Assembly: GCF_002117125.1 (NCBI RefSeq)
Contig: NZ_CP019344.1
Location: forward strand, 372,001 to 436,000
From: Nonlabens spongiae
GTDB lineage: Bacteria; Bacteroidota; Bacteroidia; Flavobacteriales; Flavobacteriaceae
Reading direction: 5' to 3'
Length of the DNA: 64,000 nt
The notes beneath the pieces were generated by a model. It made no database searches, was not told where the DNA came from, and worked only from the letters and a program-made list of their open reading frames with translations. Each line of letters begins with the position of its first letter. Within the stretch, counting starts at the first letter, position 1. The position numbers and the translations under genes are program-made. Below are positions 2,527 to 59,513 of this stretch, piece after piece.

Positions 2527-2542
2527 CGCTTTCGCGAAAGCG
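2527..2542. repeat. 16-bp palindrome copy 1 (intergenic)
   Basis: Perfect CGCTTTCGCGAAAGCG, lying between the DUF4349 gene and the MFS remnant, followed by AGAACA. Confidence 0.95.
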
Positions 2543-2625
2543 AGAACAACATCAACAGTCTTGAGATACGACGAAAGTTCAATCAAATGGGAATGGGAAT
2601 TTTCTTGAATATTTCAAATTCTGTA

Positions 2626-3029
2626 TCAGCTCTTGTAGAATAAGGCAAAAAGTCCGAGAATCGGCCCGATTGCGAGAAATGTAAATAGAAGGGTTACATC
2701 TATATAATCCATCATCAAATTGATGATCTGGATGCTAACTATAGAAATTGTAAAACCTATACAGTTTACAAGTGTTAAAGCAGCTCCACGGATTTCTGGT
2801 AAGGCGCTTTGAGCTACCTGAGTAGACAATAATGGTGAATCTGCAGTCACGGCCATTCCCCATAACATCAAAAAACCTAGAAAAATGATTTGATAATCTG
2901 TCATGAAAAGTACTGGTGAGAGCAAACAGCAAATCCCACTAGTTTCTCGGAGAGTCTGCCATAAATGCCCCAAACCGCTCCTAATATCAAAGCTCCTGAG
3001 ACGATGAGTATTACGATAAAGGTAGTCAT
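2626..3029 (-). pseudogene. MFS transporter remnant (C-terminal part, frameshifted)
   Basis: Read on the minus strand, an ORF starting at 3029 (MTTFIVILIVSGALILGAVW, then GIYGRLSEKL) runs into a stop after GFAVCSH. The neighbouring frame continues the transporter (CLLSPVLFMTDYQ, FLGFLMLWGMAVTADSPL, IRGAALTLVNCIGF) to a stop at 2626. Together they give only the last three or four membrane helices of a roughly 400-residue major facilitator protein. The N-terminal two thirds are not found upstream. The gene is therefore truncated and frameshifted. Family assignment rests on the ADSPL...GAALTLVNCIGF pattern known from MFS permeases. Confidence 0.75.
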
Positions 3030-3081
3030 ATCAAGCAGATTTTTGTAAGGCTATGATGATGGATTCAAAAAATAGACAATC

Positions 3082-3231
3082 TCAGTTCCTTTTAAAAATG
3101 TAGATTATTATTCCTGTAACAAAGAATCCGGCTTCAGAAATTTGACCTATGATTGGATCTGCCCAGTGAAGTATTGTCATTATTGAGCTAATCATTATCA
3201 GAAGAACGCCTAATATTATTAAAAGGAATGA
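3082..3231 (-). pseudogene. Fragment of a small membrane protein
   Basis: A minus-strand frame reading FLLIILGVLLIMISSI, then ILHWADPIIGQISEAGFF and a final IYIFKRN runs to a stop at 3082. It has two hydrophobic segments but is preceded by a stop codon (TAG) with no start codon, so it is the C-terminal remnant of a two-helix protein. The HWADPIIG motif between helices recalls small flavobacterial membrane proteins with HWP motifs. It lies in the same decayed island as the MFS and the next remnant. Confidence 0.45.
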
Positions 3232-3293
3232 ATGCTAAAGCCCTCATGTCCCACTAAAGTACTAATTTTAAGTATGGACACATTTAGTCTAAT

Positions 3294-3306
3294 TTTCGCG
3301 AAAGCG
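3294..3306. repeat. Partial palindrome copy (right half intact)
   Basis: TTTCGCGAAAGCG followed by AGAACAT. The left arm is AATT instead of CGC, so this is a degenerate copy of the 16-bp palindrome inside the decayed island. Confidence 0.7.
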
Positions 3307-3362
3307 AGAACATCCCGCTCGCTACTTTTCAAGAAACAATATAACTTGAAAGCTAAATCCTG

Positions 3363-3735: not shown

Positions 3736-3816
3736 TTGATTAAAAAGATCTGTTGTATATAGGCCGTTCAGCTATGACGTGAACAACCTCTAGACGCATG
3801 GAGCTGGATTCTGCTC

Positions 3817-3857: not shown

Positions 3858-3871
3858 ATAGGGAGATTTAA

Positions 3872-5188: not shown

Positions 5189-6610
5189 TTAATATCTCAA
5201 CTCGCTGGCTTTGACTTGATAATCAAATTGTTTTTGTCCCTGACTATCATAAATCGTGAGTTTCAATTGCCGATTCTTACGATCACCAGTAACGTTCAAA
5301 ATACCAAAGTTATGCTCATAAAACGTCTTGCCCTCTACTTGAAAACTGTTCCCTTCATCTCTTGCAGCATGTGTACCCGCAGTAAGTGGAGAGCAGGTAA
5401 TGTCGATGAGTGGGTAGGCATTCTCACGCTCCATACGTGAGATCTCCGTGTGATGTCGGTCTCCACTTAAGAAGATCACACCAGAAATGCGCTCCTCGTG
5501 CAATCTTTTAAGCAATTTTTCCCTTTCGCCGGGATAGGTCGCATAGTTCTCATATTTTGCGGCATCGCTCACGATCTGTCCACCAGCAACCACGATTTTA
5601 AAACTGGCTCTGCTCGCCGTGAGTGCGTCGATCAACCAGTCCAGTTGTTCTTTGCCAAAGTAGGCCTTGTCCCTGTCACGAGATCGGTTAGGTGCACGAT
5701 GGTAGCGATCATCGAGCATAAAGAACTCCACATCTGCCGTGGCAAAATGGCTTGTGATACCGCCTTTGCCTGTTGCATTTGTATTGAAATTTCCCCAGTA
5801 GGTATTAAAAATACGTTCTGAGATCTTTTTGTTTACATAACTACGGTCGCTATCATTAGGTCCATAATCATGGTCATCCCAGATGGCATAATTGTGAACA
5901 CTTGCCAGTAAAGCTTGCATTTCTGGAAGTGAGCGTGTATGACGGTAGCGATGCTCGATGCCGGTTTCGGTCAGGAAATCTGGTGTGCGTAGATACATAT
6001 TATCGCCCATCCATAACATCATATCGGGATCTTGTTCCAGAATTGAGTTGAAAATTTCATATCCCCCACCATAAGGTTCAGGCCGGTCGTCGCGCTCCTC
6101 ATTTATAAAAGAACAGCTTCCTATAGCGATACTGAGCGCTGGTGGCTCGGTGCGGTATTGCCACAATTCTTGGGTTTGAAACTCAGTTTTGTAGGGAAAT
6201 TCCAGTTTCTCATCGTTGATATAAACATCATATTGATACGTAGTGCCGTATTCCAAATCAGTAGGGAAGAGCTTTGCGATGTGATAATCTTCTTGAGTTG
6301 TAGTGACCTGCTGCGTGTATCTTTCGTCTATTCCTTTTGAACGGTAGGCGATTTTAACTCGAGCACTTTCAGTGGTTTGCACCCAGATCAATAGCTCCCT
6401 GAATCCAGAATAGCCCAGCATGGGACCGGCTTGTAAGAGATCTGTTGCGGTTTTGGAAACGGGTATATCTTCTGCGTAAACAGGTCCTTTTACTTGAATG
6501 ACAGAAGTTATTTCGCTGTCGTTTGATTTGGAAAGTGGGTGAGATGTTTCCGCTTTCGCGAAAGCGTAACTCATCAATAGCATCACCATCAATTTCAATC
6601 TTAGAATCAT
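5189..6610 (-). CDS. PhoD-like secreted metallophosphatase
   Basis: Secreted alkaline phosphatase/phosphodiesterase of the PhoD family (metallophosphatase fold, usually iron/calcium). The 473 residues carry a signal peptide (1-20), an N-terminal beta domain, and the catalytic motifs GSCSF (164-168), MGDN (201-204), WDDHDYG (244-250), LDDRYHR (299-305) and GDRHH (383-387). The 16-bp palindrome at 6551-6566 encodes residues 16-20, AFAKA, at the end of the signal peptide; its AKA fits the AxA signal-peptidase I site. Monocistronic, with a large gap before rpoD. Phosphate control is plausible but no Pho box was found. Confidence 0.92.
   Translation of the reverse strand: MILRLKLMVMLLMSYAFAKAETSHPLSKSNDSEITSVIQVKGPVYAEDIPVSKTATDLLQAGPMLGYSGFRELLIWVQTTESARVKIAYRSKGIDERYTQQVTTTQEDYHIAKLFPTDLEYGTTYQYDVYINDEKLEFPYKTEFQTQELWQYRTEPPALSIAIGSCSFINEERDDRPEPYGGGYEIFNSILEQDPDMMLWMGDNMYLRTPDFLTETGIEHRYRHTRSLPEMQALLASVHNYAIWDDHDYGPNDSDRSYVNKKISERIFNTYWGNFNTNATGKGGITSHFATADVEFFMLDDRYHRAPNRSRDRDKAYFGKEQLDWLIDALTASRASFKIVVAGGQIVSDAAKYENYATYPGEREKLLKRLHEERISGVIFLSGDRHHTEISRMERENAYPLIDITCSPLTAGTHAARDEGNSFQVEGKTFYEHNFGILNVTGDRKNRQLKLTIYDSQGQKQFDYQVKASELRY
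6551..6566. repeat. 16-bp palindrome copy 2 (in phoD-like signal peptide)
   Basis: Perfect copy; read in the AFAKA phase, it supplies the signal-peptidase cleavage region of the PhoD-like protein. Confidence 0.95.
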
Positions 6611-9233: not shown

Positions 9234-9249
9234 CGCTTTCGCGAAAGCG
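9234..9249. repeat. 16-bp palindrome copy 3 (intergenic)
   Basis: Perfect copy six bases after the priA stop codon, followed by AGATTAA. Confidence 0.95.
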
Positions 9250-11259: not shown

Positions 11260-11474
11260 TTACTGTATTTAAGTTACCTTAACCGGCAGCAGTATAATCT
11301 TTTTCTGCTGAAGGTTTTCTATTAATTTCAATTTCCTAAAAATACATTTTAAAAATAGAATTTTCCATCGATTAAAACTTGTTCAACTCGATCGATGTTT
11401 TCTTCATACAATCCCTAATCCCACCACCTTAAAATCACCTTCATTTCCTTAAATTGCGAGTAAGAAATTTTGAT

Positions 11475-13010
11475 TTGAAGATACTCAGCGCACAACAACT
11501 TGCCGAAGCCGACAAGTCCACCATTGAAAAGCAACAAATCACCAGCATCGACCTAATGGAGCGGGTCGCCACGCTGGTCGTGGAGCGATTGCACGCCCGT
11601 CTCAATGGCGCGCCGGTTCCCATTAAAATCTTTTGCGGGATCGGTAACAATGGCGGCGATGGCCTTGCGATTGCTAGACTTATGATCCAGCACGGTTATC
11701 ACGTCACTACTTATGTGACCAATTGCAGTAAGAAACGCAGCAAGGACTTTCTCGTGAATTACGATCGCATCAAAGACGTGACAAAGGACTGGCCCATTTT
11801 ATTGAGCTGCAAGGAGGATTTTCCTGAGATCACACCCAAGGATATTGTGATAGACGCTGTTTTTGGCACGGGTTTGAATCGGCCGGTGACGGGATGGATG
11901 GCAGATTTATTCAATTATATCAATTCAGTTTCCGCTTTTACCGTCGCTATAGACATGCCCAGCGGCTTGTACGCAAATGAACCGCACGATAAACAAGACG
12001 CGATAGTCAAGGCAGATCATACCTTTACCTTTCAAACGCCCAAACTATCCTTTTTTCTACCCGAAACAGGGAATCAAGTGGGCACATTTGAAGTGCTCAA
12101 CATAGGTCTCGACCCTGAGTACCTCATGCAGGCGCAGCCTCTCGCTCAGCTCATTGCACGTGAAGCAGCTCAAAACATGTACCGCCAGCGCGATAAATTT
12201 GTCCACAAAGGCAACTTGGGGCATGTATTATGCATGGGTGGTTCTCACGGCATGATGGGGAGTATTTCCCTCACCGCCGGTGCTGCGATTAACGCAGGCG
12301 CAGGCAAAGTAAGTGCTTACATCCCCAGTCATGGGAACACTATCGTGCAGACTCTTTGTCCCGAGGTGATGACCTTATCCAGCAAGGGCGAGCAATTCAT
12401 CACTGATTTTGAGCATGTCTTAAAGGACTACGTGTTATGTGTAGGGCCTGGAATGGGGCAGGAGGAGGAAAGTTATTCCGCTTTCGCGAAAGCGGTACAT
12501 CAACAATCATCTCCCATGATCATAGATGCAGATGCGATCAACCTGCTTGCCTCAAACCATGATCTGCTGGAAAAATTACCCAAAAACAGCATACTGACTC
12601 CACACGACGGAGAACTTAAGCGATTGATAGGCGATTGGAAAAACGACTATGAGCGATTAGAAAAAGCCAAAGAGTTCTCCGCAAAGCACGATCTAATACT
12701 GGTACTAAAAGGAGCCTACACGATTACCGTTGCTGAGAATCACCTATATGTGAATGATAGTGGAAATCCTGGCATGGCTACTGCTGGTAGCGGCGATGTT
12801 CTAGCCGGTGTGATTGCCTCTTTTGTCGCTCAAGGTTATGACCCACTTATCGCAACGGTTTTTGGCGTTCATATGCACGGTGCAAGCGGTGATCTTGCTG
12901 CCCAGACTTATGCGCATGAAGGTCTTAAGGCGAGTATTATATCAAATTTCATAGGACCAGCCATTTTAAACCTATTCAGAAATCCAGAAAACAAACCCCA
13001 AAACGCATAA
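11475..13010 (+). CDS. nnr: Bifunctional NAD(P)HX epimerase / ADP-dependent dehydratase
   Basis: Repairs hydrated NADH and NADPH: the N-terminal YjeF_N epimerase (to about 215) interconverts R- and S-NAD(P)HX and the C-terminal YjeF_C kinase-fold domain dehydrates the S form using ADP. Seen motifs are FCGIGNNGGDGLAIAR, DAVFGTGLNR, the kinase-domain GNLGHVLCMGGSHGMMG, and the nucleotide-binding NPGMATAGSGDVLAG. I chose the TTG at 11475 (MKILSAQQL, as in homologues) over the in-frame TTG at 11454. The palindrome at 12479 encodes SAFAKAV in the dehydratase domain. The stop overlaps the hutH start by one base (TAATG). Confidence 0.93.
   Translation: MKILSAQQLAEADKSTIEKQQITSIDLMERVATLVVERLHARLNGAPVPIKIFCGIGNNGGDGLAIARLMIQHGYHVTTYVTNCSKKRSKDFLVNYDRIKDVTKDWPILLSCKEDFPEITPKDIVIDAVFGTGLNRPVTGWMADLFNYINSVSAFTVAIDMPSGLYANEPHDKQDAIVKADHTFTFQTPKLSFFLPETGNQVGTFEVLNIGLDPEYLMQAQPLAQLIAREAAQNMYRQRDKFVHKGNLGHVLCMGGSHGMMGSISLTAGAAINAGAGKVSAYIPSHGNTIVQTLCPEVMTLSSKGEQFITDFEHVLKDYVLCVGPGMGQEEESYSAFAKAVHQQSSPMIIDADAINLLASNHDLLEKLPKNSILTPHDGELKRLIGDWKNDYERLEKAKEFSAKHDLILVLKGAYTITVAENHLYVNDSGNPGMATAGSGDVLAGVIASFVAQGYDPLIATVFGVHMHGASGDLAAQTYAHEGLKASIISNFIGPAILNLFRNPENKPQNA
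12479..12494. repeat. 16-bp palindrome copy 4 (in nnr)
   Basis: Perfect copy read as AFAKA inside the dehydratase domain, in a surface-like segment between EEESYS and VHQQSS. Confidence 0.95.
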
Positions 13011-18064: not shown

Positions 18065-18080
18065 CGCTTTCGCGAAAGCG
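18065..18080. repeat. 16-bp palindrome copy 5 (intergenic)
   Basis: Perfect copy 30 bases upstream of the M28 peptidase start. Confidence 0.95.
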
Positions 18081-19376: not shown

Positions 19377-19418
19377 TCTAAATTTTAAAATTTTGATTAG
19401 AGTATTTTGAGGGTTTTT

Positions 19419-19434
19419 GCTTTCGCGAAAGCGA
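19419..19434. repeat. Palindrome copy with one mismatch
   Basis: Has T in place of the first C but is otherwise complete (GCTTTCGCGAAAGCG), in the gap between gldI and the PPIase gene. Confidence 0.85.
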
Positions 19435-21071: not shown

Positions 21072-22895
21072 TCAAGCGCGCAGGCTCTGCATATTTACCA
21101 GAGCGTAATAATGCCCGTTTTTTGCCAGCAACTCTTCATGGGTACCTTGTTCTACAATCTCGCCCTGACCCATAACCACAATGTGATCTGCATTTTGAAT
21201 GGTAGATAGGCGGTGTGCGATCACGATACTGGTACGGTTTTTCATAATGCGTTCTAAGGCATCTTGGACCAGACGCTCACTTTCTGTGTCGAGTGCACTG
21301 GTAGCCTCATCCAGTATGAGTATGGGAGCGTTCTTTAAAACGGCACGTGCGATACTGAGGCGCTGTTTTTGCCCACCGCTCAGTTTGCCACCGCTGTCAC
21401 CTATGTTAGTATGAATTCCTTCATCAAGATCCTTGACAAACTCCCATGCATTGGCAACTTTGAGCGCTTTGATAATGTCTTCCTCAGTCGCATTTTTATC
21501 GCTCAAGGCTACATTTACCGCCACCGTATCGTTAAAAAGGATACTGTCTTGAGTAACGATTGCCATTTGATCGCGTAGCGTTTTTAAGCTCACATTCTTG
21601 ATATCATGCCCGTCGATGGTGATGCTGCCGTTTTGAACATCGTAAAACCGAGTGAGCAGGTTTGCAATTGTACTTTTACCTGAACCACTCTGGCCTACGA
21701 GGGCGACACTTTTCCCCTTTTCAACGTTCAGCGTGAAGTTTTTGAGTACAGGATTCTCGTTATAGGCAAAGGTGACGTTTTTGAGTTGTATCGCTTTCGC
21801 GAAAGCGGGAATTTCAATAGCTCCAGGCTTATCCTCGATCGTATTTTGCGTATGTAAAATCTCTAAGACGCGTTCTGCAGCGGCGTTTCCTTGCTTGACT
21901 CCATAACTAGCCTTTGAAATAGCTTTAGCAGGCGTGAGGATTCCGTAGGCCAGTCCCATGAATGAAATGAAGATAGCACCATCTATATCGCCGTCAAACA
22001 CCATCGTACCTCCAAACCAAAGCAATGTCCCGATCACTAGAATACCTAGAAACTCACTTACTGGGCTGGCAAGTCCCTTACGTAATTCCAGCTTATTTGC
22101 GTAATTGTAATATCGTTGTGTACTGTCAGTAAATGTATCTTCCATACGCGATTCGGCATTAAAACCTTTTATGACCTTAAGTCCGCCCAAGGTTTCTTCA
22201 AGCAGAGACAGAAAATAACCCTGCTCGCTCTGCACCCTATCAGATTGTTTTTTTAAACGCTTGCCTATAAGCGATATGATAAATCCAGAAACTGGAATAA
22301 ATACTAATACAAAAATGGTAAGCTTGACACTAAATAATAGCATGGCTACAAGTGCAAAAAGAATGTTGAGTGGTTCTTTTACCATCAATTCCAGTACCGA
22401 TAGGAAACTGGTTTGTATCTGTTGCGTATCATTTGTAGCGCGAGCAATAACGTCACCTTTACGCTTTTCAGAAAAAAATGATATGGGGAGATTCACTACT
22501 TTGTGATAAAGCTCATTTCTTATATCGCGCATCACACCATTGCGTAGAAAGGTGATGAAATACATCCCTAAATATCCAAAAAGATTTTTCAGCAAAAATA
22601 GAATCAGGACTAATGCTATCATCATAACAAGTGCTTTGTCTTGATTTTCATTCATCACATCAGTCACGTACCAGTTGACATAACTTTCTAGGTATTCCTT
22701 TGATTCCCTAATACCGGTCCAAACGGGTTTGACATATTCTTCTTCAGTAGTTTGAAACAACACTTTCATCACCGGCACTAATGCTACAAATGAAAGAGTT
22801 CCAAAAAGCGCGTAGAAAATATTACAGACAATATTAAGGACACCATACCTTTTATAGGGTTTGGCGTAAGTTAGGATTTGCTTGAAGTAATTCAT
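21072..22895 (-). CDS. MsbA-like ABC exporter
   Basis: A half-transporter of 607 residues with six membrane helices (about 15-320) and an ATPase domain (about 360-600): Walker A GQSGSGKST, signature LSGGQKQR, Walker B ILILDEAT, switch His in IVIAHRLST. Homodimers of this type export lipids, lipid A core or drugs. The palindrome at 21792 encodes PAFAKAI exactly in the linker between membrane and ATPase domains. The start overlaps the mutase stop by one base (TAATG), so it is translated after that gene. Confidence 0.92.
   Translation of the reverse strand: MNYFKQILTYAKPYKRYGVLNIVCNIFYALFGTLSFVALVPVMKVLFQTTEEEYVKPVWTGIRESKEYLESYVNWYVTDVMNENQDKALVMMIALVLILFLLKNLFGYLGMYFITFLRNGVMRDIRNELYHKVVNLPISFFSEKRKGDVIARATNDTQQIQTSFLSVLELMVKEPLNILFALVAMLLFSVKLTIFVLVFIPVSGFIISLIGKRLKKQSDRVQSEQGYFLSLLEETLGGLKVIKGFNAESRMEDTFTDSTQRYYNYANKLELRKGLASPVSEFLGILVIGTLLWFGGTMVFDGDIDGAIFISFMGLAYGILTPAKAISKASYGVKQGNAAAERVLEILHTQNTIEDKPGAIEIPAFAKAIQLKNVTFAYNENPVLKNFTLNVEKGKSVALVGQSGSGKSTIANLLTRFYDVQNGSITIDGHDIKNVSLKTLRDQMAIVTQDSILFNDTVAVNVALSDKNATEEDIIKALKVANAWEFVKDLDEGIHTNIGDSGGKLSGGQKQRLSIARAVLKNAPILILDEATSALDTESERLVQDALERIMKNRTSIVIAHRLSTIQNADHIVVMGQGEIVEQGTHEELLAKNGHYYALVNMQSLRA
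21792..21807. repeat. 16-bp palindrome copy 6 (in ABC exporter)
   Basis: Perfect copy read as AFAKA in the linker between transmembrane and nucleotide-binding domains. Confidence 0.95.
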
Positions 22896-24610
22896 TATTG
22901 AACGCCTAGATCTGACAGTATGCCGTCCATCTTATCAAACAATTGCTGCCTCTTGGCAAAGTAATTATCGATGGAATCCAACTCGGTTTTGGCGGAAATG
23001 TAGAACTTTATTTTTGGCTCCGTACCGCTGGGTCGTGCCGCGATCTTAGTACCATCGGCTAGGTAGAAGATCAGCACGTTTGACTTAGGCAGATCGATAT
23101 CCTCCGTTTTATCCAGTTCTTTGTTATGCCTCTTGCTAGTCGCATAATCTTCCATAATGACCACGTCCTGCCCGCCTATTTGAGCTGGAGAATTCTCACG
23201 TAGATCAATCATCATTTGTTTGATTTCTTCAGCACCAGAAATACCTTTCTTTACTAGAGAAACTAATTTTTCTTGATACAGTCCGTGCTCTAGGTAGAGC
23301 TTCAATAATTCCTGATAGGCGGTTGAATTTTGCGCTTTCGCGAAAGCGTACATCTCACAAGCCAGTAAACTAGCAGTTACAGCATCTTTATCACGCACAA
23401 AGTCGCCCACCATGTAACCAAAACTTTCCTCACCACCACCGATGAAGTCCTGATCTGGATGGTCCAAGATCATTTTTGCAATCCATTTGAAACCAGTAAG
23501 TCCTTCCTTGCATTCCACCTCGTACTTGCTCGCCAGGTCGTGCATCATAGGTGTAGATACGATGGTCGAGCCTATAAAAGGAGCTTTTTTAGAACCAAGA
23601 TCTGTCTGGCGTAAAAGGAAATCAGTCATGGCGATCATAGTTTGGTTTCCATTAAGTAGGGTCATATTACCCTCATTATCACGCACTGCGACCCCTAAGC
23701 GATCACAATCTGGATCTGTACCGATTACGATGTCTGCATGAATTTGATTTGCGAGGTCAACAGCCATTTTCAGAGCTGCTGGTTCTTCTGGATTTGGTGA
23801 ATTTACGGTCGGGAAATCTCCATCAGGGAACGCTTGTTCCTTAACAACATGTAAATCTGTATAGCCAGCGCGCTTCAAAGTTTCTGGCACCATCGTAATA
23901 CTGGTCCCATGAAGACTGGTAAAAACAATTTTTAAACGACTGCGATCTATATCACCGGCAATCTTACCAGATTTAATACTGTCTTCGATAAAATTATTAT
24001 CGTCCTCTTCACCTAATAGTTCAATAAGCTCCCCCTTACCATTAAAATTGATGTCTGAAAATTGGGTTTTATTAATAAGGTTAAGGATTTCCTTGTCCTG
24101 AGGCGGTACGAGCTGCCCACCATCTTGCCAGTATACCTTATATCCATTATACTCTGGCGGGTTGTGGCTCGCAGTGAGCACAATACCAGCGTGACAGCCT
24201 TTTTTCTTTACCGTATAGGAAAGAACTGGAGTAGGGCGCAATTCTGGAAATAAATAGACCTTGATATTATTTGCACTAAGGACTTGAGCAACGACCTGAG
24301 CCAACTCTTGCGAATTATGACGGCAATCGTAAGCTATCGCAACTTTCACCTGCTCATCAGGAAATTCTTGAAGGAGGTATTGGGACAGACCTTGCGTATT
24401 TTTACCTAAGGTATACTTGTTGATACGGTTAGTTCCCACACCCATGACACCTCGCATTCCTCCGGTACCAAATTCAAGATCCTTATAAAAGGATTCTTTA
24501 AAATTGTCATCGTTGGCATTTATCATAGCTTGAGTGGCAGCTACGGTTTTTTCATCAAAAGGAGGTTGTGTCCATGCCTGGGCACTGCTTAATATTTTGT
24601 CTTGGTCCAT
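22895..24610 (-). CDS. Alpha-D-phosphohexomutase (phosphoglucomutase/phosphomannomutase)
   Basis: Interconverts hexose 1- and 6-phosphates for polysaccharide and nucleotide-sugar synthesis. The 571 residues carry the phosphoserine loop TASHNPPEYNGYK, the metal-binding GTDPDCDRLG, the sugar-binding GGGEESFGYMVGD and the phosphate-binding RPSGTEPKIKFY. The length fits the longer PgcA/PGM2-like group. The palindrome at 23333 encodes YAFAKAQ. The stop overlaps the ABC exporter start by one base; pairing with an exporter suggests a cell-surface sugar role, which is inference. Confidence 0.95.
   Translation of the reverse strand: MDQDKILSSAQAWTQPPFDEKTVAATQAMINANDDNFKESFYKDLEFGTGGMRGVMGVGTNRINKYTLGKNTQGLSQYLLQEFPDEQVKVAIAYDCRHNSQELAQVVAQVLSANNIKVYLFPELRPTPVLSYTVKKKGCHAGIVLTASHNPPEYNGYKVYWQDGGQLVPPQDKEILNLINKTQFSDINFNGKGELIELLGEEDDNNFIEDSIKSGKIAGDIDRSRLKIVFTSLHGTSITMVPETLKRAGYTDLHVVKEQAFPDGDFPTVNSPNPEEPAALKMAVDLANQIHADIVIGTDPDCDRLGVAVRDNEGNMTLLNGNQTMIAMTDFLLRQTDLGSKKAPFIGSTIVSTPMMHDLASKYEVECKEGLTGFKWIAKMILDHPDQDFIGGGEESFGYMVGDFVRDKDAVTASLLACEMYAFAKAQNSTAYQELLKLYLEHGLYQEKLVSLVKKGISGAEEIKQMMIDLRENSPAQIGGQDVVIMEDYATSKRHNKELDKTEDIDLPKSNVLIFYLADGTKIAARPSGTEPKIKFYISAKTELDSIDNYFAKRQQLFDKMDGILSDLGVQ
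23333..23348. repeat. 16-bp palindrome copy 7 (in phosphohexomutase)
   Basis: Perfect copy read as AFAKA near residue 423, after CEM and before QNSTAYQ. Confidence 0.95.
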
Positions 24611-26458: not shown

Positions 26459-26746
26459 ATGAATAATCAAGAAGAAATCTACAAAAAGGCAAAGGAGAGA
26501 ATTCATCAACTCAGAGCATTTTACACGCACTTCACAGTTTTTCTCGTGATTGCTATACCCTCCTTGATCATAGGCTGGATATTATCTAAGGCTGTATTCC
26601 ATAGTTTCTTGATAGGTTATGCAGGCTGGGGATTAGGAGTGCTTATTCATGCTATCGTAACGTTTGAGATCTTCAACTTCTGGGGTAAGGACTGGGAGGA
26701 CCGCAAGCTTAAGGAAATCATCCAAAAAGAAAATCAAAATGCGTAG
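26459..26746 (+). CDS. 2TM domain protein
   Basis: A 95-residue protein made only of a 2TM domain: KERIHQLRAFYTHFTVFLV, a second helix, and the typical GWGLGVLIHAIVTFE and WEDRKLKEIIQKE end. It is paralogous to the two copies fused to the preceding kinase. It lies 10 bases after the kinase and overlaps the regulator start by 8 bases. Its role is unknown; co-occurrence with LytS/LytR pairs suggests a membrane accessory of the signalling system. Confidence 0.88.
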   Translation: MNNQEEIYKKAKERIHQLRAFYTHFTVFLVIAIPSLIIGWILSKAVFHSFLIGYAGWGLGVLIHAIVTFEIFNFWGKDWEDRKLKEIIQKENQNA

Positions 26747-27512
26747 CATCATAATAGAAGACGAGAAACCTGCAGCGAGACGCCTACAGCGCATGGTGAC
26801 TGAAATAGATCAAGCTCCCGTAGCCGTGTTGCATAATGTTAACGATAGCATCGAATACCTAAAGAACAACGACCACCCTGATCTTATTTTTCTGGACATA
26901 CAATTGAGTGACGGCTTATCTTTTGAAATTTTTGATCATGTAGAGGTGAGCAGTTCCATAATCTTTACCACGGCTTATGATGAGTACGCCCTGCAAGCCT
27001 TCAAACTCAACAGTATCGACTACCTTCTCAAACCCATTGATGAAGAGGAGCTTAAGGCAGCGATGGATAAATTTAGTTCACGCTTTCGCGAAAGCGAGAA
27101 AACGACAACCACCGTTCAGCAACTGGACCTGGAAAGTATCGCAAGACTTCTTCAGAATCCCGTGGATAAACAATACAAGAAGCGATTTACCGCAAGAGTA
27201 GGTGAGCACATTAAACTGTTTCCCGTGGATGAGGTCCAGCTTTTTTATTCTGAAAATAAGGGGACATACCTTAATATAGAAAACGGGAGAAATTACCTGA
27301 TTGATTCCAAGCTTGAAGCTCTGGAAGACGAGCTGGAACCCCAAAAGTTTTATCGCATAAGCCGGCAGGCGATCGTAAATGTAGATGCCATACAAGATAT
27401 CGTTGCTTATACAAACAGCCGCTTACAGGTTAAGATTAAATCATTTGATGAGTTCAAACTCATCGTAAGCAGAGAACGTGTAAAAGATTTTAAAAATTGG
27501 ATAAACCGCTGA
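26739..27512 (+). CDS. LytTR-family response regulator
   Basis: DNA-binding partner of the upstream kinase. The start at ATG 26739 gives MRSIIIEDEKPAARR, the normal receiver beginning; the longer frame upstream reads through the 2TM gene. Receiver domain (1-115) with DLIFLDIQLSDG phosphoacceptor Asp, TTAYDEYAL and LLKPID; LytTR DNA-binding domain (about 155-257) with FYSENKGTYLNIENGRNYLI and FYRISRQAIVN. The palindrome at 27081 encodes RFRESE in the linker between the domains. Confidence 0.94.
   Translation: MRSIIIEDEKPAARRLQRMVTEIDQAPVAVLHNVNDSIEYLKNNDHPDLIFLDIQLSDGLSFEIFDHVEVSSSIIFTTAYDEYALQAFKLNSIDYLLKPIDEEELKAAMDKFSSRFRESEKTTTTVQQLDLESIARLLQNPVDKQYKKRFTARVGEHIKLFPVDEVQLFYSENKGTYLNIENGRNYLIDSKLEALEDELEPQKFYRISRQAIVNVDAIQDIVAYTNSRLQVKIKSFDEFKLIVSRERVKDFKNWINR
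27081..27096. repeat. 16-bp palindrome copy 8 (in response regulator)
   Basis: Perfect copy read in the RFRES phase, in the inter-domain linker. Confidence 0.95.
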
Positions 27513-33150: not shown

Positions 33151-34116
33151 TTAAACGATTCCTTCTCTTATTAAATCATGAATGTGGACCACACCTGCAT
33201 ATTTATCATCTTCTAGAGCTACCAGCTGTGTGATGTTGTATTCCTCAAGGATCTCACGCGCCTCAACCGCCATGGCATCATTATCAATCGTTTTGGGCCC
33301 TGAGGTCATGATATCTTTAGCCGTAAGTGAATCAATGTCTTTATTAGTAGTCAACATACGCCTTAAGTCACCGTCAGTTATGATTCCTATCACTTTTTCG
33401 TTTTCAGTCACTACCGTCATTCCCAGGCGGTTTTCAGAAATATTGATGATTACTTCCCTGAGCGTAGACAGTTTATGAACTTGAGGTCGTGCATTTATAG
33501 CAGTGAGGTCACTCACTCTCAAATACAATCTCTTGCCTAAAGCCCCACCAGGATGGTAGCGAGCAAAATCTTGGTCTGTAAAACCTTTTAATTCTAACAG
33601 GCAAATCGCAAATGCATCACCTATGACAAGCTGTGCGGTGGTGCTCGTAGTAGGAGCCAGACCATTGGGACAGGCTTCTTCTTCAATAGGCGCGTAGAGA
33701 ATAAAATCTGCTTCTTGCCCTAAGAAAGAGTCCTTATTACTGGTAATGGCGATCAATTTATTTTCAAAATTCTTGATGAGTGGTACAAGCACTTTAATTT
33801 CTGGAGTGGTACCGCTTTTTGAGATACAAATGACCACATCGTCTCGCTGTATGTTTCCCAGATCACCGTGAATAGCGTCAGCGGCATGCATAAAAACAGC
33901 AGGTGTTCCCGTACTATTGAGGGTAGCCACGATTTTTTGGGCGATAATGGCACTTTTGCCTATTCCAGTGATGATGACTCTACCTTTTGATAAGTGCACG
34001 TGTTGTACCGCTTTCGCGAAAGCGGAATCTAAACTATCCAGTAAACCTTTTATGGCTTTTTGTTCTATTTCTACGGTACGTCGGGCTACGGAGAGGATTT
34101 GCTGCTCGTCTTGCAA
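33151..34116 (-). CDS. kdsD: Arabinose-5-phosphate isomerase (KdsD/KpsF)
   Basis: Makes D-arabinose 5-phosphate for Kdo of LPS. SIS domain (GRVIITGIGKSAIIAQK, HAADAIHGDLG, ISKSGTTPEIK, PTTSTTAQLVIGDA) followed by two CBS domains (GIITDGDLRRML; DIMTSGPKTID, VVHIHDLIREGIV). No ATG lies near the expected start; I choose TTG 34116 because homologues begin about there. The frame stays open to an ATG at 34209, but that overlaps the divergent recQ start. The palindrome at 34009 encodes AFAKAVQ near the N-terminus. Operon with tatC. Confidence 0.92.
   Translation of the reverse strand: MQDEQQILSVARRTVEIEQKAIKGLLDSLDSAFAKAVQHVHLSKGRVIITGIGKSAIIAQKIVATLNSTGTPAVFMHAADAIHGDLGNIQRDDVVICISKSGTTPEIKVLVPLIKNFENKLIAITSNKDSFLGQEADFILYAPIEEEACPNGLAPTTSTTAQLVIGDAFAICLLELKGFTDQDFARYHPGGALGKRLYLRVSDLTAINARPQVHKLSTLREVIINISENRLGMTVVTENEKVIGIITDGDLRRMLTTNKDIDSLTAKDIMTSGPKTIDNDAMAVEAREILEEYNITQLVALEDDKYAGVVHIHDLIREGIV
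34009..34024. repeat. 16-bp palindrome copy 10 (in kdsD)
   Basis: Perfect copy read as AFAKA between SLDS and VQHVHLS, before the SIS fold. Confidence 0.95.
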
Positions 34117-34200
34117 AGTGGGCGCTATTTTAGAATTTGTGATAACGAAATTATATCGTAAATTTAGCTTACAAAGATAGTTAAAAACCCTACAGCCATT

Positions 34201-39003: not shown

Positions 39004-39186
39004 TGCTTAAAATTTTTGATAAAAATACGCCTCAGGTTCACAGCTATTATTAAACTAACAGTTAAAAGGCTAGACCAGCAATCTCTACTGGCTTCAGGTC
39101 AGCGCCATTGGGAATAAATTTTGTCCATTGAGAAAAGCGATCATGAATCATGTCTATCTCATTTTCAAACCAACTATTTTTGCAGC

Positions 39187-40383
39187 ATGGCAAGAGTAGT
39201 AGTAGGATTATCAGGTGGAGTGGACAGCAGTGTTTCTGCATATCTTTTAAAGGAGCAAGGACATGAGGTGATCGGGCTTTTTATGAAGAACTGGCACGAC
39301 GATTCTGTAACCATTAGCGATGAATGTCCCTGGCTGGAAGATTCTAACGATGCCATGCTGGTGGCAGATAAGTTGGGAATTCCATTTCAAACGGTGGATT
39401 TAAGCGAGATGTATAAAGAGCGCATCGTTGATTATATGTTTGATGAGTATGAGCGAGGTCGTACGCCTAATCCTGATGTACTTTGTAATCGAGAGATCAA
39501 GTTTGATGTTTTTCTAGATATCGCGATGGATTTGGGAGCTGATTATGTGGCCACCGGCCATTACTGTCAAAAAGATTCTTCTATGGCAAATGGCAAGGAG
39601 GTATTTCAATTAAAGGCTGGAGCAGATCCTAATAAAGATCAGAGTTATTTTCTTTGTCAGGTTTCTCAAGCACAACTTGCCAAAACCCTTTTTCCCATAG
39701 GCCATCTGCAAAAAAGCGAAGTGCGTGCCATCGCCGCAGAACAGGATCTGATCACTGCTGGTAAGAAAGATTCGCAAGGTTTATGTTTTATCGGTAAAGT
39801 GCGTCTTCCGGATTTTCTGCAGCAAAAACTCCAACCTAAACCTGGAGAAATAATAGAGATAGACGCTTCAATTAGCGATGCCAGATCTTCAGAAGTAAGT
39901 GTGGAGCAAGAAGAATTCAGTAGGGATGAATTGATCTCGCTTTCGCGAAAGCGTACCTATCAAAAAACCGATGGAAAAGTAGTCGGCAAACATCAAGGAG
40001 CACATTACTTCACCCGTGGACAGCGTAAGGGACTCGCCGTGGGAGGAACACCAGAGCCCCTTTTTGTGATCGATACGGATGTCAATGAAAACATTATTTA
40101 TACTGGTCAGGGAAAATCGCATTCTGGATTATACAGACACGGTTTACGAGTTGCAGCAGATGAAATTCACTGGATCAGGGAAGATTTGAAGCTGGCAGTA
40201 GGAGAGAGTAAGCCAGTGATGGCGCGCATACGCTACCGTCAGCAATTGGAACCGGCTAGACTTTTTATGACCGAAGATGGTCTTTTTGTGCTATTTGATG
40301 AAAAACAGAGTGCGATCGCTCCTGGTCAGTTTGTGGCATGGTACGAGGGTGATGAATGTTTGGGTTCAGGAGTTATTTCGTAA
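39187..40383 (+). CDS. mnmA: tRNA-specific 2-thiouridylase MnmA
   Basis: Thiolates U34 of Lys, Glu and Gln tRNAs. Start at ATG 39187 ([20 protein letters not shown]); the in-frame extension to 39121 does not belong. PP-loop SGGVDSS, catalytic Cys in [12 protein letters not shown] and the second Cys in [10 protein letters not shown] are present, as is [15 protein letters not shown]. An extra segment around 235-262 contains the palindrome (39938), read here as SLSRKRT. A perfect -7 box TATTTTTG ends 4 bases before the ATG, hinting at a very short leader. Confidence 0.96.
39938..39953. repeat. 16-bp palindrome copy 11 (in mnmA)
   Basis: Perfect copy in the third codon phase (SLSRKR), the only one of its kind in the window, in a variable segment before the conserved HYFTRGQ motif. 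Confidence 0.95.
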
Positions 40384-42092: not shown

Positions 42093-42108
42093 CGCTTTCG
42101 CGAAAGCG
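42093..42108. repeat. 16-bp palindrome copy 12 (parC upstream region)
   Basis: Perfect copy 66 bases upstream of the parC start. Confidence 0.95.
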
Positions 42109-49516: not shown

Positions 49517-50575
49517 TTACTTCTTCTCCTCACGATTGAAATAAACGAGGTAGTAATACATCTGGCGTTCCTCGTCCCAGCCTTTCTCGATGAATTTTTC
49601 TGCGCTGTCGCTGTTGGTAAAGTCCATTTTGATTTGAACGTGGGTGTCGAGGTTGATCACGCTCTTAATGCCCTTTCTAGCCGCGGTCACGGCCGTATTT
49701 GAGATAGGGAAGGAGCTCACGTCTTCAATGCTGTATTTGGGGCCTTTCTCAACTTTGTAATTCTTGAACTCGGGTATGAGTTCTGGATTTTCTAATGTCT
49801 CATTTAAGAATACCGTTTCTTCAAAATCGTCATTCTTCGCAAAGTGGTTCACCGCACGGTTCATGAACATTACCTCTTCTTTTTTGTCCTCGGCTGGTAG
49901 GACGACTTCTTTGGCAAAATCCTGACAGAATTTGAGGTATTTCTTAGTGAAAAAGTTCTCGTCCTCAAAAACATCAACACCCAAAAAGCTCTCCAGCCAG
50001 TATTTTGCATCATAGCGGTTGCTGTCTACTGATAGGATCTTATAGCCCGATTCTTCTTCAACATTAAAAATGATGGCACCTTTGTCCAGTTTGTTAAGAT
50101 TCACACCTTGCTGCAGGATCATGCGTAAATCGTCTTCACGTTCCTCAAACTGCAAAAATTCTTGCTTGATCTCGCTTTTGAATATCCCGACGGCGTCCAC
50201 CTTATTGTTGTCCACCATCAGGTTTTCTAGATGACAGACGTATATCTCACCACTTCGTATGTGTGGATGATCTGACTGTTGATAGAGGTGTTTGGCAATC
50301 TTTTTACTCGTATCCAGCAGAGAAGCTGGTGTGTTAAATATCGCTTTCGCGAAAGCGTACATCTCATGAAACTCCAAGTCTTCTTCATGGTGAAAGCTGT
50401 AATAAGCCTCCTCCTTAGAGCGGAAGGGTTTCAAGAAATACTCCTTGAGTAGCGAGTGCATCTCATCGTCCAGCGGTGTGGTGTTGCTGGAGGTAAGCAA
50501 TAGCTCGCCTTTATTCTTATTGCCCACGCGGTGGATGGCGAGGTTTTCAATGCGGGTATTGAATAGATTGATCAT
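49517..50575 (-). CDS. Nucleoid-associated protein (YejK/NdpA family)
   Basis: The 352-residue length and motifs fit the family: N-terminal NTRIENLAIHRVGNKNKGE, IYVCHLENLMVDNNKVDAVGIFKSE and C-terminal KIDFTNSDSAEKF-like QIKMDFTNSDSAEKFIEKG. YejK proteins bind the nucleoid; their exact role is unknown. The palindrome at 50342 encodes MYAFAKAIF near residue 75. It follows the pRiA4b ORF-3-like gene by 3 bases and is probably in its operon. Confidence 0.9.
   Translation of the reverse strand: MINLFNTRIENLAIHRVGNKNKGELLLTSSNTTPLDDEMHSLLKEYFLKPFRSKEEAYYSFHHEEDLEFHEMYAFAKAIFNTPASLLDTSKKIAKHLYQQSDHPHIRSGEIYVCHLENLMVDNNKVDAVGIFKSEIKQEFLQFEEREDDLRMILQQGVNLNKLDKGAIIFNVEEESGYKILSVDSNRYDAKYWLESFLGVDVFEDENFFTKKYLKFCQDFAKEVVLPAEDKKEEVMFMNRAVNHFAKNDDFEETVFLNETLENPELIPEFKNYKVEKGPKYSIEDVSSFPISNTAVTAARKGIKSVINLDTHVQIKMDFTNSDSAEKFIEKGWDEERQMYYYLVYFNREEKK
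50342..50357. repeat. 16-bp palindrome copy 13 (in nucleoid-associated gene)
   Basis: Perfect copy read as AFAKA between EMY and IFNTPASL. Confidence 0.95.
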
Positions 50576-53901: not shown

Positions 53902-53940
53902 ACCACAAAAGTAAGGTCTAGAGTCAGAATTAAAGTCGGC

Positions 53941-56920: not shown

Positions 56921-57033
56921 CGCATTTTAATAGAATCATCAAATCTTTAATAACCTGCTAGGACAACCTTAGCAGGCTATTATCATGAATAGGGGAATTG
57001 TCATGCGATCTTTGGGGAAAATAAAAAACTATT

Positions 57034-57582
57034 ATGAAAAAGAAAGTAGCCATATTAGCAACAAATGGATTTGAAGAAGTAGAATTAACAAGCCCTAAAA
57101 AAGCGCTAGAAGACGCCGGTGCCGAAGTTCACATCGTGAGTCCAGAAGCCGTAAGTATCAAAGCATGGGATAAAGACAAATGGGGAGATACTTATAAAGT
57201 AGATAAGCAAGTTTCTGAGGTATCTGCTTCAGATTATAATTCGTTGATGTTACCTGGAGGCGTTATGAATCCAGACCAGCTGAGAATGAATAATGATGCG
57301 ATAAGCTTTATAAGAGATTTCTTCAAGCAAGGAAAACCTGTAAGTGCTATTTGCCACGGTATTCAACCGCTTATCGATGCAGAGGTATTAAAAGGTAGAA
57401 AACTTACTTCTTACCCATCACTGAAAAAAGACGTAATGAACGCTGGAGGTAATTGGGTAGATGAAGAAGTAGTCGTAGACCAAGGTTTTACCACGAGTAG
57501 AACGCCTGACGACTTAGATGCTTTTAATGCAAAACTAGTAGAAGAAGTAAAAGAAGGTAAACACGATGAGCAACACGCGTAA
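57034..57582 (+). CDS. DJ-1/PfpI-family protein
   Basis: The 182 residues show KVAILATNGFEEVELTSP with the conserved Glu, and the nucleophile elbow SAICHGIQPLIDAE with Cys. The family includes glyoxalase III, deglycase and general-stress proteins (YhbO/PfpI). Chemistry here is inferred. Ends with a good terminator. Monocistronic. Confidence 0.93.
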   Translation: MKKKVAILATNGFEEVELTSPKKALEDAGAEVHIVSPEAVSIKAWDKDKWGDTYKVDKQVSEVSASDYNSLMLPGGVMNPDQLRMNNDAISFIRDFFKQGKPVSAICHGIQPLIDAEVLKGRKLTSYPSLKKDVMNAGGNWVDEEVVVDQGFTTSRTPDDLDAFNAKLVEEVKEGKHDEQHA

Positions 57583-57605
57583 ATTGTAAACCTTCATAAA
57601 TCAGA

Positions 57606-57636
57606 AACGTCCCGAAATTCATCGGGACGTTTTTTT
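57606..57636 (+). terminator. Terminator of the DJ-1/PfpI gene
   Basis: AACGTCCCGA (57606-57615) pairs with TCGGGACGTT (57622-57631), then T run. Shared position with the end of bshB1 on the other strand. Confidence 0.9.
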
Positions 57637-57642
57637 ATGTAA

Positions 57643-58359
57643 TTAAATCAAGTCAAAAAGACTATCCACTGCGGGATAACGCTCTGCAATAAATCCCTCA
57701 CCGTAGTCAGTTCCTATAATTCTGCCATAATTAGCGCTTCTATACTTGATGGAATTGAGAAAGTTCTTAGTAGAAATGGGGGTGTCCTCGCTCTTATCGT
57801 CTGGATTGTAAAATTGGGTTTTATACGCTTGAACGGCATCAATTTTCTCATCGATGAATCCCGTAATGTCAACGACGATGTCTGGCTTAAGTTCCAACCA
57901 TTGAATGTAGTGATACACTTGCTTAGGACGCCAGTGTTCTTGCTGCCTACCGTCCAGTTCGGTTTTAATTCTTTTCAATCCTGATAGAAAACAGCTCACG
58001 CTCGCTAAATCGCTACCTCGACCATGATCAGGATGCCGATCTTGTGGTGAGTTACAGATTACGATCTCTGGGCGGTATTTTCTAATGATTTTTATGATCT
58101 CCATCTGGTGTTCCCGATCATTGCTGAAAAACCCATCGGCAAATGCGAGGTTTTCACGCACGCTCAGTTTCATGATTTTTGCAGCATCTGCAGCTTCATG
58201 ATCTCGTATTTCAGCGCTCCCTTTAGAGCCTAATTCACCACGGGTCAGATCTAGGACACCGGTTCTTTTTCCTCTGGACTGTTCTTTAATCAAGACGCCC
58301 GCACAGCTTAATTCAACATCGTCTGGGTGCGCGCCTATGGCTAGAATATCTAATTTCAT
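57643..58359 (-). CDS. bshB1: Bacillithiol biosynthesis deacetylase BshB1
   Basis: Removes the acetyl group from GlcNAc-malate in bacillithiol synthesis. The 238 residues carry the LmbE/PIG-L zinc motif AIGAHPDDVELSCAG, the DLTRGELGSKGS segment diagnostic of BshB1, and SPQDRHPDHGRGSD. The start overlaps the trans-sulfuration gene stop by one base, so low-molecular-weight thiol and sulfur amino acid synthesis are coupled. bshA and bshC are not in the window. Confidence 0.95.
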   Translation of the reverse strand: MKLDILAIGAHPDDVELSCAGVLIKEQSRGKRTGVLDLTRGELGSKGSAEIRDHEAADAAKIMKLSVRENLAFADGFFSNDREHQMEIIKIIRKYRPEIVICNSPQDRHPDHGRGSDLASVSCFLSGLKRIKTELDGRQQEHWRPKQVYHYIQWLELKPDIVVDITGFIDEKIDAVQAYKTQFYNPDDKSEDTPISTKNFLNSIKYRSANYGRIIGTDYGEGFIAERYPAVDSLFDLI

Positions 58360-59513
58360 TATTGCTTTTTTGATTTCTCAATGGCGTTTTCTATGTCGGT
58401 TTTGAGCACCTCAAATTCCTCAATTCCACAGGAGAATCTCAGTAATCGGTCTGAAATTCCTTGCTCTGCACGCTGTTCTGGGGTCAGAAGGCTATGAGAA
58501 GTGAGAGCGGGAGACAAGATAATACTTTCTACACCTGCAAGGCTTAGGGCAGGTCTTATAACCTCAAGATGCTCGAGAAACGCATCAGGATCTACTTGTT
58601 CATTGAATTCAAAAGAAAGCATCCCGCCGTAACCGTGCATTTGCTTCTTTGCTACCTCATGATTTTTGTGATTTGGTAAACCGGGATAATTCACGCGAGC
58701 TACACAATCGAGTCCATCCAGCCAACTGGCAAGTTCACCGGCGTTTTTAGTCTGTTCTTTAACCCGCAAGCCTAAAGTTTTTATACTGCGATCCAGTAAC
58801 CAAACGGTATGATCGCTGAGGCTCCCACCATAATTCTTAGCCGTTTTCCACAAGCGATCCATGTCATCGTGAGAGCCACAAACCGTTCCCGCACAAATAT
58901 CGCTGTGACCTCCCAGATATTTTGTCGCGCTGTGCATGATGATATCTATTCCCCAATCGGCAGGATTTTGGTTGATGGGCGAGGCAAAGGTGTTGTCGAT
59001 AACGGTTTTTAATGAGTTCGCTTTCGCGAAAGCGGAAACCACTTCAAGATCAGTAATCTCTAACAACGGATTGCTGGGCGTTTCTACGTAAAGCATTTTG
59101 GTTTCTGGCTTCATCGCCTGCTCCAAATTTTCTGGAGTAATTTCTTCCAGTAGGGTATAATCAATTCCCACACGGTGAAATTCTGCCGCGGCAAAATGGG
59201 CAGTTCCTCCATAAATCGCGCGCTGCATGATGATATGGTCACCACTTTTGAGAAATGCCATAAACACCGCACTGATCGCTGCCATACCGCTACCAAAAAT
59301 CAAACCAGCTTCAGTATGTTCCAAAGCTGCTATTTTCTCGCCCAGCGCTATTTGATTAGGAGTATTAAAATAACGCGGATATAGATTTGTGCCCTCACTA
59401 CGGTAATCATAAGCCGTGGAAGTGTAGATGGGCGGTGTAGCACCTCCATATACTTCGTCTCGCAACTCGCCAGCGTGGACACAAAGATGATTAGGTGCGG
59501 GTTTCTTTTTCAT
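58359..59513 (-). CDS. Trans-sulfuration PLP enzyme (cystathionine gamma-synthase/lyase type)
   Basis: Cys/Met metabolism PLP enzyme of 384 residues. Substrate-binding YGGATPPIYTSTAYDY, PLP-phosphate GSGMAAISAVF, IDNTFASP and the PLP-lysine motif HSATKYLGGHSD are present; RFSCGIEEFEVL ends the fold. Sequence alone does not separate MetB, MetC-like, MGL or CGL. The palindrome at 59019 encodes SAFAKANSL. It is the first gene of the operon with bshB1, and supplying cysteine for bacillithiol is a reasonable inference. Confidence 0.93.
   Translation of the reverse strand: MKKKPAPNHLCVHAGELRDEVYGGATPPIYTSTAYDYRSEGTNLYPRYFNTPNQIALGEKIAALEHTEAGLIFGSGMAAISAVFMAFLKSGDHIIMQRAIYGGTAHFAAAEFHRVGIDYTLLEEITPENLEQAMKPETKMLYVETPSNPLLEITDLEVVSAFAKANSLKTVIDNTFASPINQNPADWGIDIIMHSATKYLGGHSDICAGTVCGSHDDMDRLWKTAKNYGGSLSDHTVWLLDRSIKTLGLRVKEQTKNAGELASWLDGLDCVARVNYPGLPNHKNHEVAKKQMHGYGGMLSFEFNEQVDPDAFLEHLEVIRPALSLAGVESIILSPALTSHSLLTPEQRAEQGISDRLLRFSCGIEEFEVLKTDIENAIEKSKKQ
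59019..59034. repeat. 16-bp palindrome copy 14 (in trans-sulfuration gene)
   Basis: Perfect copy read as AFAKA near residue 162, just ahead of the TVIDNTF strand. Confidence 0.95.

What the first reader, a model, noticed from the sequence alone, without database searches (positions are those of the whole stretch)
2527..59034. A perfect 16-bp palindrome is repeated 14 times
CGCTTTCGCGAAAGCG occurs perfectly at 2527, 6551, 9234, 12479, 18065, 21792, 23333, 27081, 29319, 34009, 39938, 42093, 50342 and 59019, on average once per 4.3 kb. By chance a given 16-mer is not expected even once in 64 kb. There is no constant longer flank, so it is not a fragment of an insertion sequence. It resembles in density the HIP1 repeats of cyanobacteria. 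A role in nucleoid binding, methylation, DNA uptake or repair is open.
Basis: partly seen in the sequence, partly recalled or inferred. Interest (0 to 1): 0.85.

Follow-up and report, generated by a model that had tools for sequence, protein, structure and literature searches.

The report
Repeated palindrome, likely DNA uptake signal
A 16-letter DNA palindrome recurs about every 4 to 5 kb through a marine bacterium's genome and in related viruses, and it looks like a tag by which cells of three bacterial genera could recognise each other's DNA when taking it up, although no experiment has yet tested that.

Summary
All 14 copies are real and the signal is genome-wide: 671 exact copies in 3.39 Mb against 0.0003 expected. 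The genus is Nonlabens, Flavobacteriaceae. The 23 Nonlabens genomes held carry 180-737 copies each. Of 397 family genomes sampled, two others carry it densely: Croceiramulus getboli (153) and an unnamed relative of Leeuwenhoekiella (630). The three lineages are not sisters (one-gene tree). Copies have symmetric flanks, poor in G on the 3' side for about 20 bp, inside and outside ORFs. They avoid close spacing, show no sign of insertion in the two genes tested, and in one ABC-transporter gene stay fixed within a variable segment. They occur in temperate phages but not in two isolated Nonlabens phages lacking an integrase. DNA uptake sequences behave like this. Best explanation (0.55): an uptake-type signal spread by transformation, using a pilus-independent machine of the Riemerella kind, parts of which are present. 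Main rival: direct selection by a DNA-binding protein.

The parts
2527..2542 (.). exact copy of CGCTTTCGCGAAAGCG, outside called ORFs
6551..6566 (.). exact copy, near the 5' end of a PhoD-like phosphatase ORF (5189-6610, minus), read SYAFAKAE
9234..9249 (.). exact copy, 6 bp after the priA-like ORF (6777-9227)
12479..12494 (.). exact copy inside the YjeF_N/Carb_kinase ORF (11454-13010), read SAFAKAV
18065..18080 (.). exact copy, outside called ORFs
19418..19433 (.). copy with one change at the outermost base (TGCTTTCGCGAAAGCG)
21792..21807 (.). exact copy inside an ABC transporter ORF (21072-22895, minus; 'msbA' is my label), between the membrane and ATPase domains, read PAFAKAI; whole 16-mer kept in 15 of 20 other Nonlabens
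23333..23348 (.). exact copy inside a phosphoglucomutase/phosphomannomutase ORF (22895-24610, minus), read YAFAKAQ; whole 16-mer in 7 of 20 other Nonlabens
27081..27096 (.). exact copy inside ORF 26664-27512, read RFRES
29319..29334 (.). exact copy inside ORF 29019-30335, read RFRES
34009..34024 (.). exact copy inside ORF 33151-34209, read SAFAKAV
39938..39953 (.). exact copy inside ORF 39121-40383, read LSRKR
42093..42108 (.). exact copy between ORFs, 66 bp before a DNA gyrase/topoisomerase IV subunit A ORF
50342..50357 (.). exact copy inside ORF 49517-50575, read YAFAKAI
59019..59034 (.). exact copy inside ORF 58359-59513, read SAFAKAN

Best explanation
The palindrome is the core of a DNA uptake-type signal of about 56 bp (16-bp core with 20-bp flanks poor in G on the 3' side). 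Shown: abundance, flanks, avoidance of close spacing, conservation at two genes, origin without insertion at two genes, and presence in temperate phages but not in two isolated phages without integrase. Inferred: an outer-membrane DNA import machine of the type-IV-pilus-independent kind known from Riemerella prefers duplex DNA that carries the signal, probably through a symmetric (two-fold) reader. Homologous recombination of imported fragments then spreads and repairs copies (molecular drive), so that about one copy per few-kb fragment accumulates.
For: 671 copies against 0.0003 expected. Close spacing avoided: in 344 kb of G000 the CV is 0.59 (random 0.98) with 0 gaps under 1 kb against 10.6 expected; G004 0.66, 2 against 11.9. 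42 of 119 copies lie outside ORFs that cover 88% of 778 kb, p 2e-11; frames 49/16/12, p 1e-7. No gap at the ABC-transporter and pgm copies in the 13 outgroup rows printed for each. In the ABC transporter the motif ranks first of 602 five-codon windows, inside a segment less conserved than 96% of windows and between two Pfam domains. Seven stretches over 11 kb lack copies; six are of low GC. Five of 19 site-bearing virus records have an integrase and one more is Mu-like; isolated Nonlabens phages P12024L/S have no copy with up to 3 changes. Pasteurellaceae phages show a like split for uptake signals (PMC6776037, passages); Neisseria DUS are likewise conserved in permissive places (PMC2397512, abstract and passages). 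G000 encodes an adjacent CarboxypepD_reg/DUF5689 pair and ComEC, as in the Riemerella transformation screen (PMC8459023, abstract, passages and section 19). R. columbina prefers its own DNA (PMC7965970, section 16).
Against: No type IV pilus/type II secretion ATPase over the cut-off in G000, G234 or G250 (3 of 13 Nonlabens have one), so the machine of known DUS/USS systems is not evident. DUF5689 and ComEC occur in every genome tested, carrier or not (30 of 30 each), so they do not explain specificity. The DUF5689 tree does not unite the carriers, and the G000 protein is strongly acidic (20 K+R, 80 D+E). I saw no report of competence in Nonlabens among the papers listed, but made no search for exactly that. 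Fourteen of 19 site-bearing virus records show no integrase, one of these being the Mu-like one. Even spacing fails when long empty stretches are included: over all 100 places listed, with a 43.6-kb gap, CV is 0.94 (p 0.33), though only 1 gap is under 1 kb against 19.2 expected. Exact copies in G250 (CV 0.99) and G234 (0.96) are not even; with up to two changes G250 is (0.58), G234 hardly (0.80, p 0.13). Four of 20 relatives have lost the ABC-transporter copy, and the pgm copy is exact in only 7 of 20. The GC trend is weak (rho 0.26).
Confidence: 0.55

Rival explanations
1. A sequence-specific chromosome-organising or nucleoid-occlusion protein, dimeric, binds the palindrome; regularly spaced sites are selected directly for chromosome structure or segregation.
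For: 16-bp perfect palindrome and symmetric flanks fit a dimeric protein; close spacing avoided; conservation.
Against: No second ParB-type protein shared by the genus: an extra one in only 3 of 23 Nonlabens. A chromosome role does not need copies in a separate 14-kb contig or in phages. Long stretches without copies are not expected if spacing alone is selected.
Confidence: 0.22
2. A Chi-like or self-protection signal: a helicase-nuclease stops or changes at the palindrome, so resident DNA carries one every few kb. The G/T-rich side upstream of the core on each strand would suit RecA loading (recalled).
For: Density near one per 5 kb, close spacing avoided, presence on the second contig and phages; strand asymmetry of flanks; long AddB stem branch in Nonlabens (0.83).
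Against: AddB of the carrier G250 falls outside the Nonlabens clade (100/100), beside G188 (86/93). A 16-bp palindrome is unlike known Chi sites (recalled). Two isolated phages do without it.
Confidence: 0.1
3. HIP1-like: copies are kept through a DNA methyltransferase acting on an inner sequence such as TCGCGA.
For: Palindromic with nested palindromes; HIP1 genomes have such enzymes (PMC4390886, passages).
Against: The constraint reaches about 20 bp beyond the core. Methylation and carrier-specific methyltransferases were not tested here.
Confidence: 0.08
4. A mobile palindromic element (REP or Rickettsia palindromic element type) inserted many times.
For: High copy number, many copies inside ORFs.
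Against: No insertion in the alignments of the two well-aligned copies. Two other genes gave one weak hit each: one ungapped at 35% identity, one at 27% with a 7-column gap before the motif, too poor to weigh. No fixed flank letters; target duplication was not tested. 49 of 77 ORF copies share one frame.
Confidence: 0.02

Closest known systems
DNA uptake sequences: Neisseria DUS and Pasteurellaceae USS
   Same: Hundreds of near-perfect copies, fewer in newly acquired DNA, placed in permissive spots yet conserved, core plus degenerate AT-rich flanks in USS, copies in temperate phages (PMC7811141, PMC2397512, PMC6776037, passages).
   Different: 16-bp perfect palindrome instead of a 9-10 bp core; one per 4-5 kb instead of about 1 kb for USS; Bacteroidota; no type IV pilus ATPase over the cut-off in G000; uptake bias not measured.
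HIP1 and other highly iterated palindromes of cyanobacteria
   Same: Genome-wide iterated palindrome.
   Different: Different and longer sequence, lower density (198 against 500-2500 per Mb), extended flanks; methyltransferase link untested.
Riemerella natural transformation machinery (CarboxypepD_reg/DUF5689 pair, ComEC, DprA, ComF, RecA)
   Same: G000 has the adjacent pair with the same domains, and ComEC; R. columbina prefers its own DNA.
   Different: No uptake signal was established for Riemerella (PMC7965970 section 16 lists A/T-rich k-mers of 7 to 10 bp); competence of Nonlabens not shown.
Chi sites
   Same: Similar density (recalled for E. coli) on resident DNA.
   Different: Known Chi sites are short and oriented (recalled); AddB inheritance does not follow the carriers.

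Membership tests
DNA uptake sequence (DUS/USS) | strong genome-wide over-representation | tested here: met
   671 against 0.0003 expected
DNA uptake sequence (DUS/USS) | over-represented outside coding sequence; conserved although in permissive spots | tested here: met
   42 of 119 outside ORFs; ABC transporter and, more weakly, pgm
DNA uptake sequence (DUS/USS) | depleted in newly acquired DNA | tested here: inconclusive
   seven long empty stretches, six of low GC, but rho 0.26, p 0.025; of ten proteins sampled there some look accessory, some ordinary
DNA uptake sequence (DUS/USS) | accumulates in temperate, not in lytic phages | tested here: inconclusive
   direction as expected, but only two alike isolated phages, and 13 of 19 site-bearing records with neither an integrase nor the Mu-like genes seen
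DNA uptake sequence (DUS/USS) | uptake by a type IV pilus machine | tested here: not met
   PF00437 not over the cut-off in G000, G234, G250
DNA uptake sequence (DUS/USS) | measured uptake preference of competent cells | not testable with these tools
   needs an uptake assay
Riemerella-type transformation machine | adjacent CarboxypepD_reg and DUF5689 genes, and ComEC | tested here: met
   pair in G000; DUF5689 30 of 30 and ComEC 30 of 30 genomes, carriers and non-carriers alike
Riemerella-type transformation machine | DprA, ComF, helix-hairpin-helix and DUF1343 genes | not tested
   no search spent on them
HIP1 | GCGATCGC or a close derivative | tested here: not met
   sequence differs
HIP1 | co-occurring methyltransferase of an inner site | not tested
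   none
ParB/Noc-type binding site | cognate ParB-family protein shared by carriers besides the usual one | tested here: not met
   extra protein in 3 of 23 Nonlabens
Chi site | reader AddAB/RecBCD shared by carriers | tested here: not met
   AddB tree; AddA and G234 not in the tree
REP/RPE mobile palindrome | insertion of a unit at each copy | tested here: not met
   ungapped at the two copies with good alignments

The most novel reading that the evidence does not exclude
A palindromic DNA uptake signal in Bacteroidota, read without type IV pili by a symmetric outer-membrane reader that passed between distant genera, making Nonlabens, Croceiramulus and a Leeuwenhoekiella relative one exchange community with a common DNA tag.
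Probability: 0.42. Interest if true: 0.92.

Novelty: new variant of a known kind. Interest (0 to 1): 0.8.

Why it matters
Self-DNA tags are best established in two families, Neisseriaceae and Pasteurellaceae, whose uptake uses type IV pili. A palindromic tag in Bacteroidota would show that such signals evolve with an unrelated import machine, would give a direct assay for the unknown outer-membrane step of flavobacterial transformation, and would mark DNA that has passed through these genera. If it is instead a binding site of an unknown chromosome or repair protein, it is an unusually long and conserved one and would lead straight to that protein.

Tried and rejected
Searches in the held PMC library: the 16-mer itself, 0 papers; Nonlabens with palindrome, 7 papers, nothing relevant in the titles and abstract starts listed; uptake sequence with natural transformation and Bacteroidetes, 3 papers, none on the point by title. 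Other repeated palindromes in outgroups: none comparable in 79 non-Nonlabens loci, only AT-rich words of two or three copies and, in two loci (L020, L036), other 12-14-mers of two copies. Stem extension by the flanks: no covariation over 90 sites. Type IV pilus, second ParB and AddB as reader: not supported. DUF5689 as the sequence reader: tree and charge speak against it; its model resembles adhesin, MAM and carbohydrate-binding sandwiches in the 50 rows listed, none described as a DNA-binding protein. Hairpin: 6-bp stem, -4.3 kcal/mol with RNA or DNA parameters; not compared with controls. One search was faulty (eight loci read on the wrong strand) and was replaced. An earlier count said 45 low-count genomes; the right number is 42.

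Rows dropped: virus sites from stretches of GC 0.495 or more, duplicates and short flanks were left out of the flank table (36 sites kept); L082 (GC 0.48) was kept although it may be chance. Only the first 14 alignments per gene were printed. One spacing list (CV 0.46) was cut before a 43.6-kb gap; one search repeats it with all 100 listed places (CV 0.94) and after the gap (0.42). ORFs come from a simple greedy caller, not a trained gene finder. Only 764,000 bases of the 3,379,276-base chromosome and the 13,959-base second contig were read. The non-carrier stretches come from eight genomes of the 42, seven chosen for recurring site spacings and G033 because it was met first.
Full report
What was checked. 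The 14 copies are present as described, with one further copy changed only at the outermost base. The window lies in a 3,393,235-base assembly of two contigs. The nearest named relative of a window gene is Nonlabens xylanidelens, 79% identical in protein, and the same-genus genome G007 has a contig of the same length as that record, so the genus is Nonlabens. The genome holds 671 exact copies; the same letters read backwards occur 0 times, and base composition predicts 0.0003.

Anatomy. In 777,959 bases of the genome there are 119 exact copies, 41 with one change, 10 with two, 15 with three and 27 with four, so the motif is nearly all-or-nothing. Of the 41 single changes, 26 are at the outermost base pair and 7 at the sixth pair. 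The flanks are degenerate but strongly shaped: little C at +1 and +2, A at +3 in about 80%, then few G to about +20, mirrored on the other side. At +3 to +20, G:C counts are 105:354 outside ORFs and 250:807 inside ORFs, so codon use is not the cause. The two flanks of a site do not covary (90 sites), which argues against a longer hairpin and for independent half-sites.

Placement. 42 of 119 copies lie outside ORFs although ORFs cover 88% (p 2e-11); within ORFs the frame that reads xAFAKAx is used 49 times against 16 and 12. Close neighbours are avoided: in 344 kb the coefficient of variation of spacing is 0.59 (0.98 at random) and no gap is under 1 kb where 10.6 are expected; the relative G004 gives 0.66. 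Over the 100 places listed, only 1 gap is under 1 kb against 19.2 expected, but one 43.6-kb empty stretch brings the coefficient to 0.94, not different from chance; on its two sides it is 0.46 and 0.42. Seven stretches of more than 11 kb in the DNA read lack even one-change copies; six have GC 0.364 to 0.377, one 0.413. Ten proteins sampled from three of them include polysaccharide synthesis genes, an IS110 transposase, a TPR protein, a P-type ATPase, an MFS transporter and an AAA protein, and also enzymes that look ordinary. The 14-kb second contig, perhaps a plasmid, has two exact copies.

Evolution. In the ABC transporter gene at 21072-22895 (Pfam ABC_membrane and ABC_tran; 'msbA' in my scripts), 16 of 20 other Nonlabens keep all five codons of the motif (15 the whole 16-mer), while other codons for conserved residues agree at the third base in 45%. 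The five-codon window ranks first of 602, yet the 15 residues on either side are only 52% identical against a gene mean of 75%. In pgm 7 of 20 are exact, the window ranks 12 of 566, and the surroundings are near the gene mean (73% against 77%). Four genomes have lost the transporter copy. In the 13 outgroup rows printed for each gene the copies align without gaps, so there they arose by substitution or replacement and not by insertion.

Distribution. The 23 Nonlabens genomes carry 180 to 737 copies; of the 36 other genomes one carries 4. In a sample of 397 genomes of the family, 48 have any copy: 4 Nonlabens, G250 (630), G234 (153) and 42 with 1 to 13. With the inner 12-mer, G250 has 917, G234 445, the four Nonlabens 586 to 801, and 98 others 1 to 21. 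In G234, 200 kb hold 34 copies of the inner 14-mer but only 16 of the 16-mer: its outermost pair is relaxed. Both share the G-poor flanks, more weakly in G234. A tree of the transporter puts G250 beside Leeuwenhoekiella and G234 beside Mesonia (one gene, quick tree). In eight non-carrier genomes looked at, the copies lie in related DNA, 67-99% identical between genomes; two of the genes that hold them, in G033, are an AcrB-type efflux pump and a heavy-metal P-type ATPase. This is as expected of mobile DNA that passed through carriers.

Phages. A scan of IMG/VR gave 41 stretches with a copy. Some are high-GC single hits that may be chance. The others carry copies with a like flank bias (36 sites), several in tail and head genes. 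Of 19 of these virus records, 5 have a tyrosine integrase and one more has Mu-type portal, F and I proteins; the other 13 show neither, many being fragments. Two phages isolated on a Nonlabens (Persicivirga) strain, P12024L and P12024S, have no integrase match and no copy with up to three changes in 71 kb together. That they were isolated by plaques is recalled; their host genome was not examined. A like contrast between temperate and large, probably lytic, phages is reported for uptake signals in Pasteurellaceae (PMC6776037, passages).

Mechanism. [quoted passage not shown] The usual machine is not evident: no type IV pilus or type II secretion ATPase over the cut-off in G000, G234 or G250; 3 of 13 Nonlabens have one. 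Flavobacteria have another machine: the Riemerella anatipestifer transposon screen found a DUF5689 protein, an adjacent outer-membrane CarboxypepD_reg protein, a helix-hairpin-helix protein and a DUF1343 protein besides ComEC, DprA, ComF and RecA (PMC8459023, abstract, passages and section 19), and R. columbina prefers its own DNA although no signal was established (PMC7965970, passages and section 16). G000 has the adjacent pair with these domains at C1:2757261-2761546; DUF5689 is found in 30 of 30 genomes tested and ComEC in 30 of 30.

What remains open. These genes are in non-carriers too, so they do not explain specificity. The DUF5689 tree splits the eight Nonlabens tested six to two and does not unite the carriers, and the protein is acidic, so it is a poor candidate for the sequence reader. 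A shared extra ParB and AddB were also not supported as readers. Competence of Nonlabens is inferred, not known. A dimeric chromosomal binding protein or a Chi-like function therefore remains possible; the copies on the second contig and phages and the long empty stretches make the first less likely, and the AddB tree speaks against the second.

Verdict. A real, unusually long and conserved genome-wide signal. It works most like a DNA uptake sequence but is not filed as a member of the pilus-dependent DUS/USS systems, because that feature was tested and not met in G000, G234 and G250.

Noticed in passing
L158-L160, L336-L343: Related DNA shared by eight non-carrier genomes at 67-99% identity, in G033 holding an AcrB-type efflux pump and a heavy-metal P-type ATPase, carries the palindrome at corresponding places, as if it had passed through carrier genomes.
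   Followed up: partly
L281, L150:7030-9789: AddB of Nonlabens sits on a long stem branch (0.83) relative to other Flavobacteriaceae; the G000 protein contains the peptide RFRES, one reading of the palindrome.
   Followed up: partly
G000:C1:2892167-2892454: A second ParB-like protein (616 residues in G000) occurs in G000, G018 and G019 among 23 Nonlabens.
   Followed up: no
L304, L305: The two isolated Nonlabens phages contain no TCGCGA and only 9-10 CGCG each; possible avoidance of the inner sequence, not tested against chance.
   Followed up: no
G000:C1:279653 and 284123: Two copies with one change and identical flanks about 4.5 kb apart, near an IS110-type transposase: a site apparently duplicated with a larger segment.
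   Followed up: no
L319, L335: Nonlabens G022 and G007 have a DUF5689 protein of a different type from that of six other Nonlabens, closer to those of other genera: perhaps replacement of a surface component.
   Followed up: no
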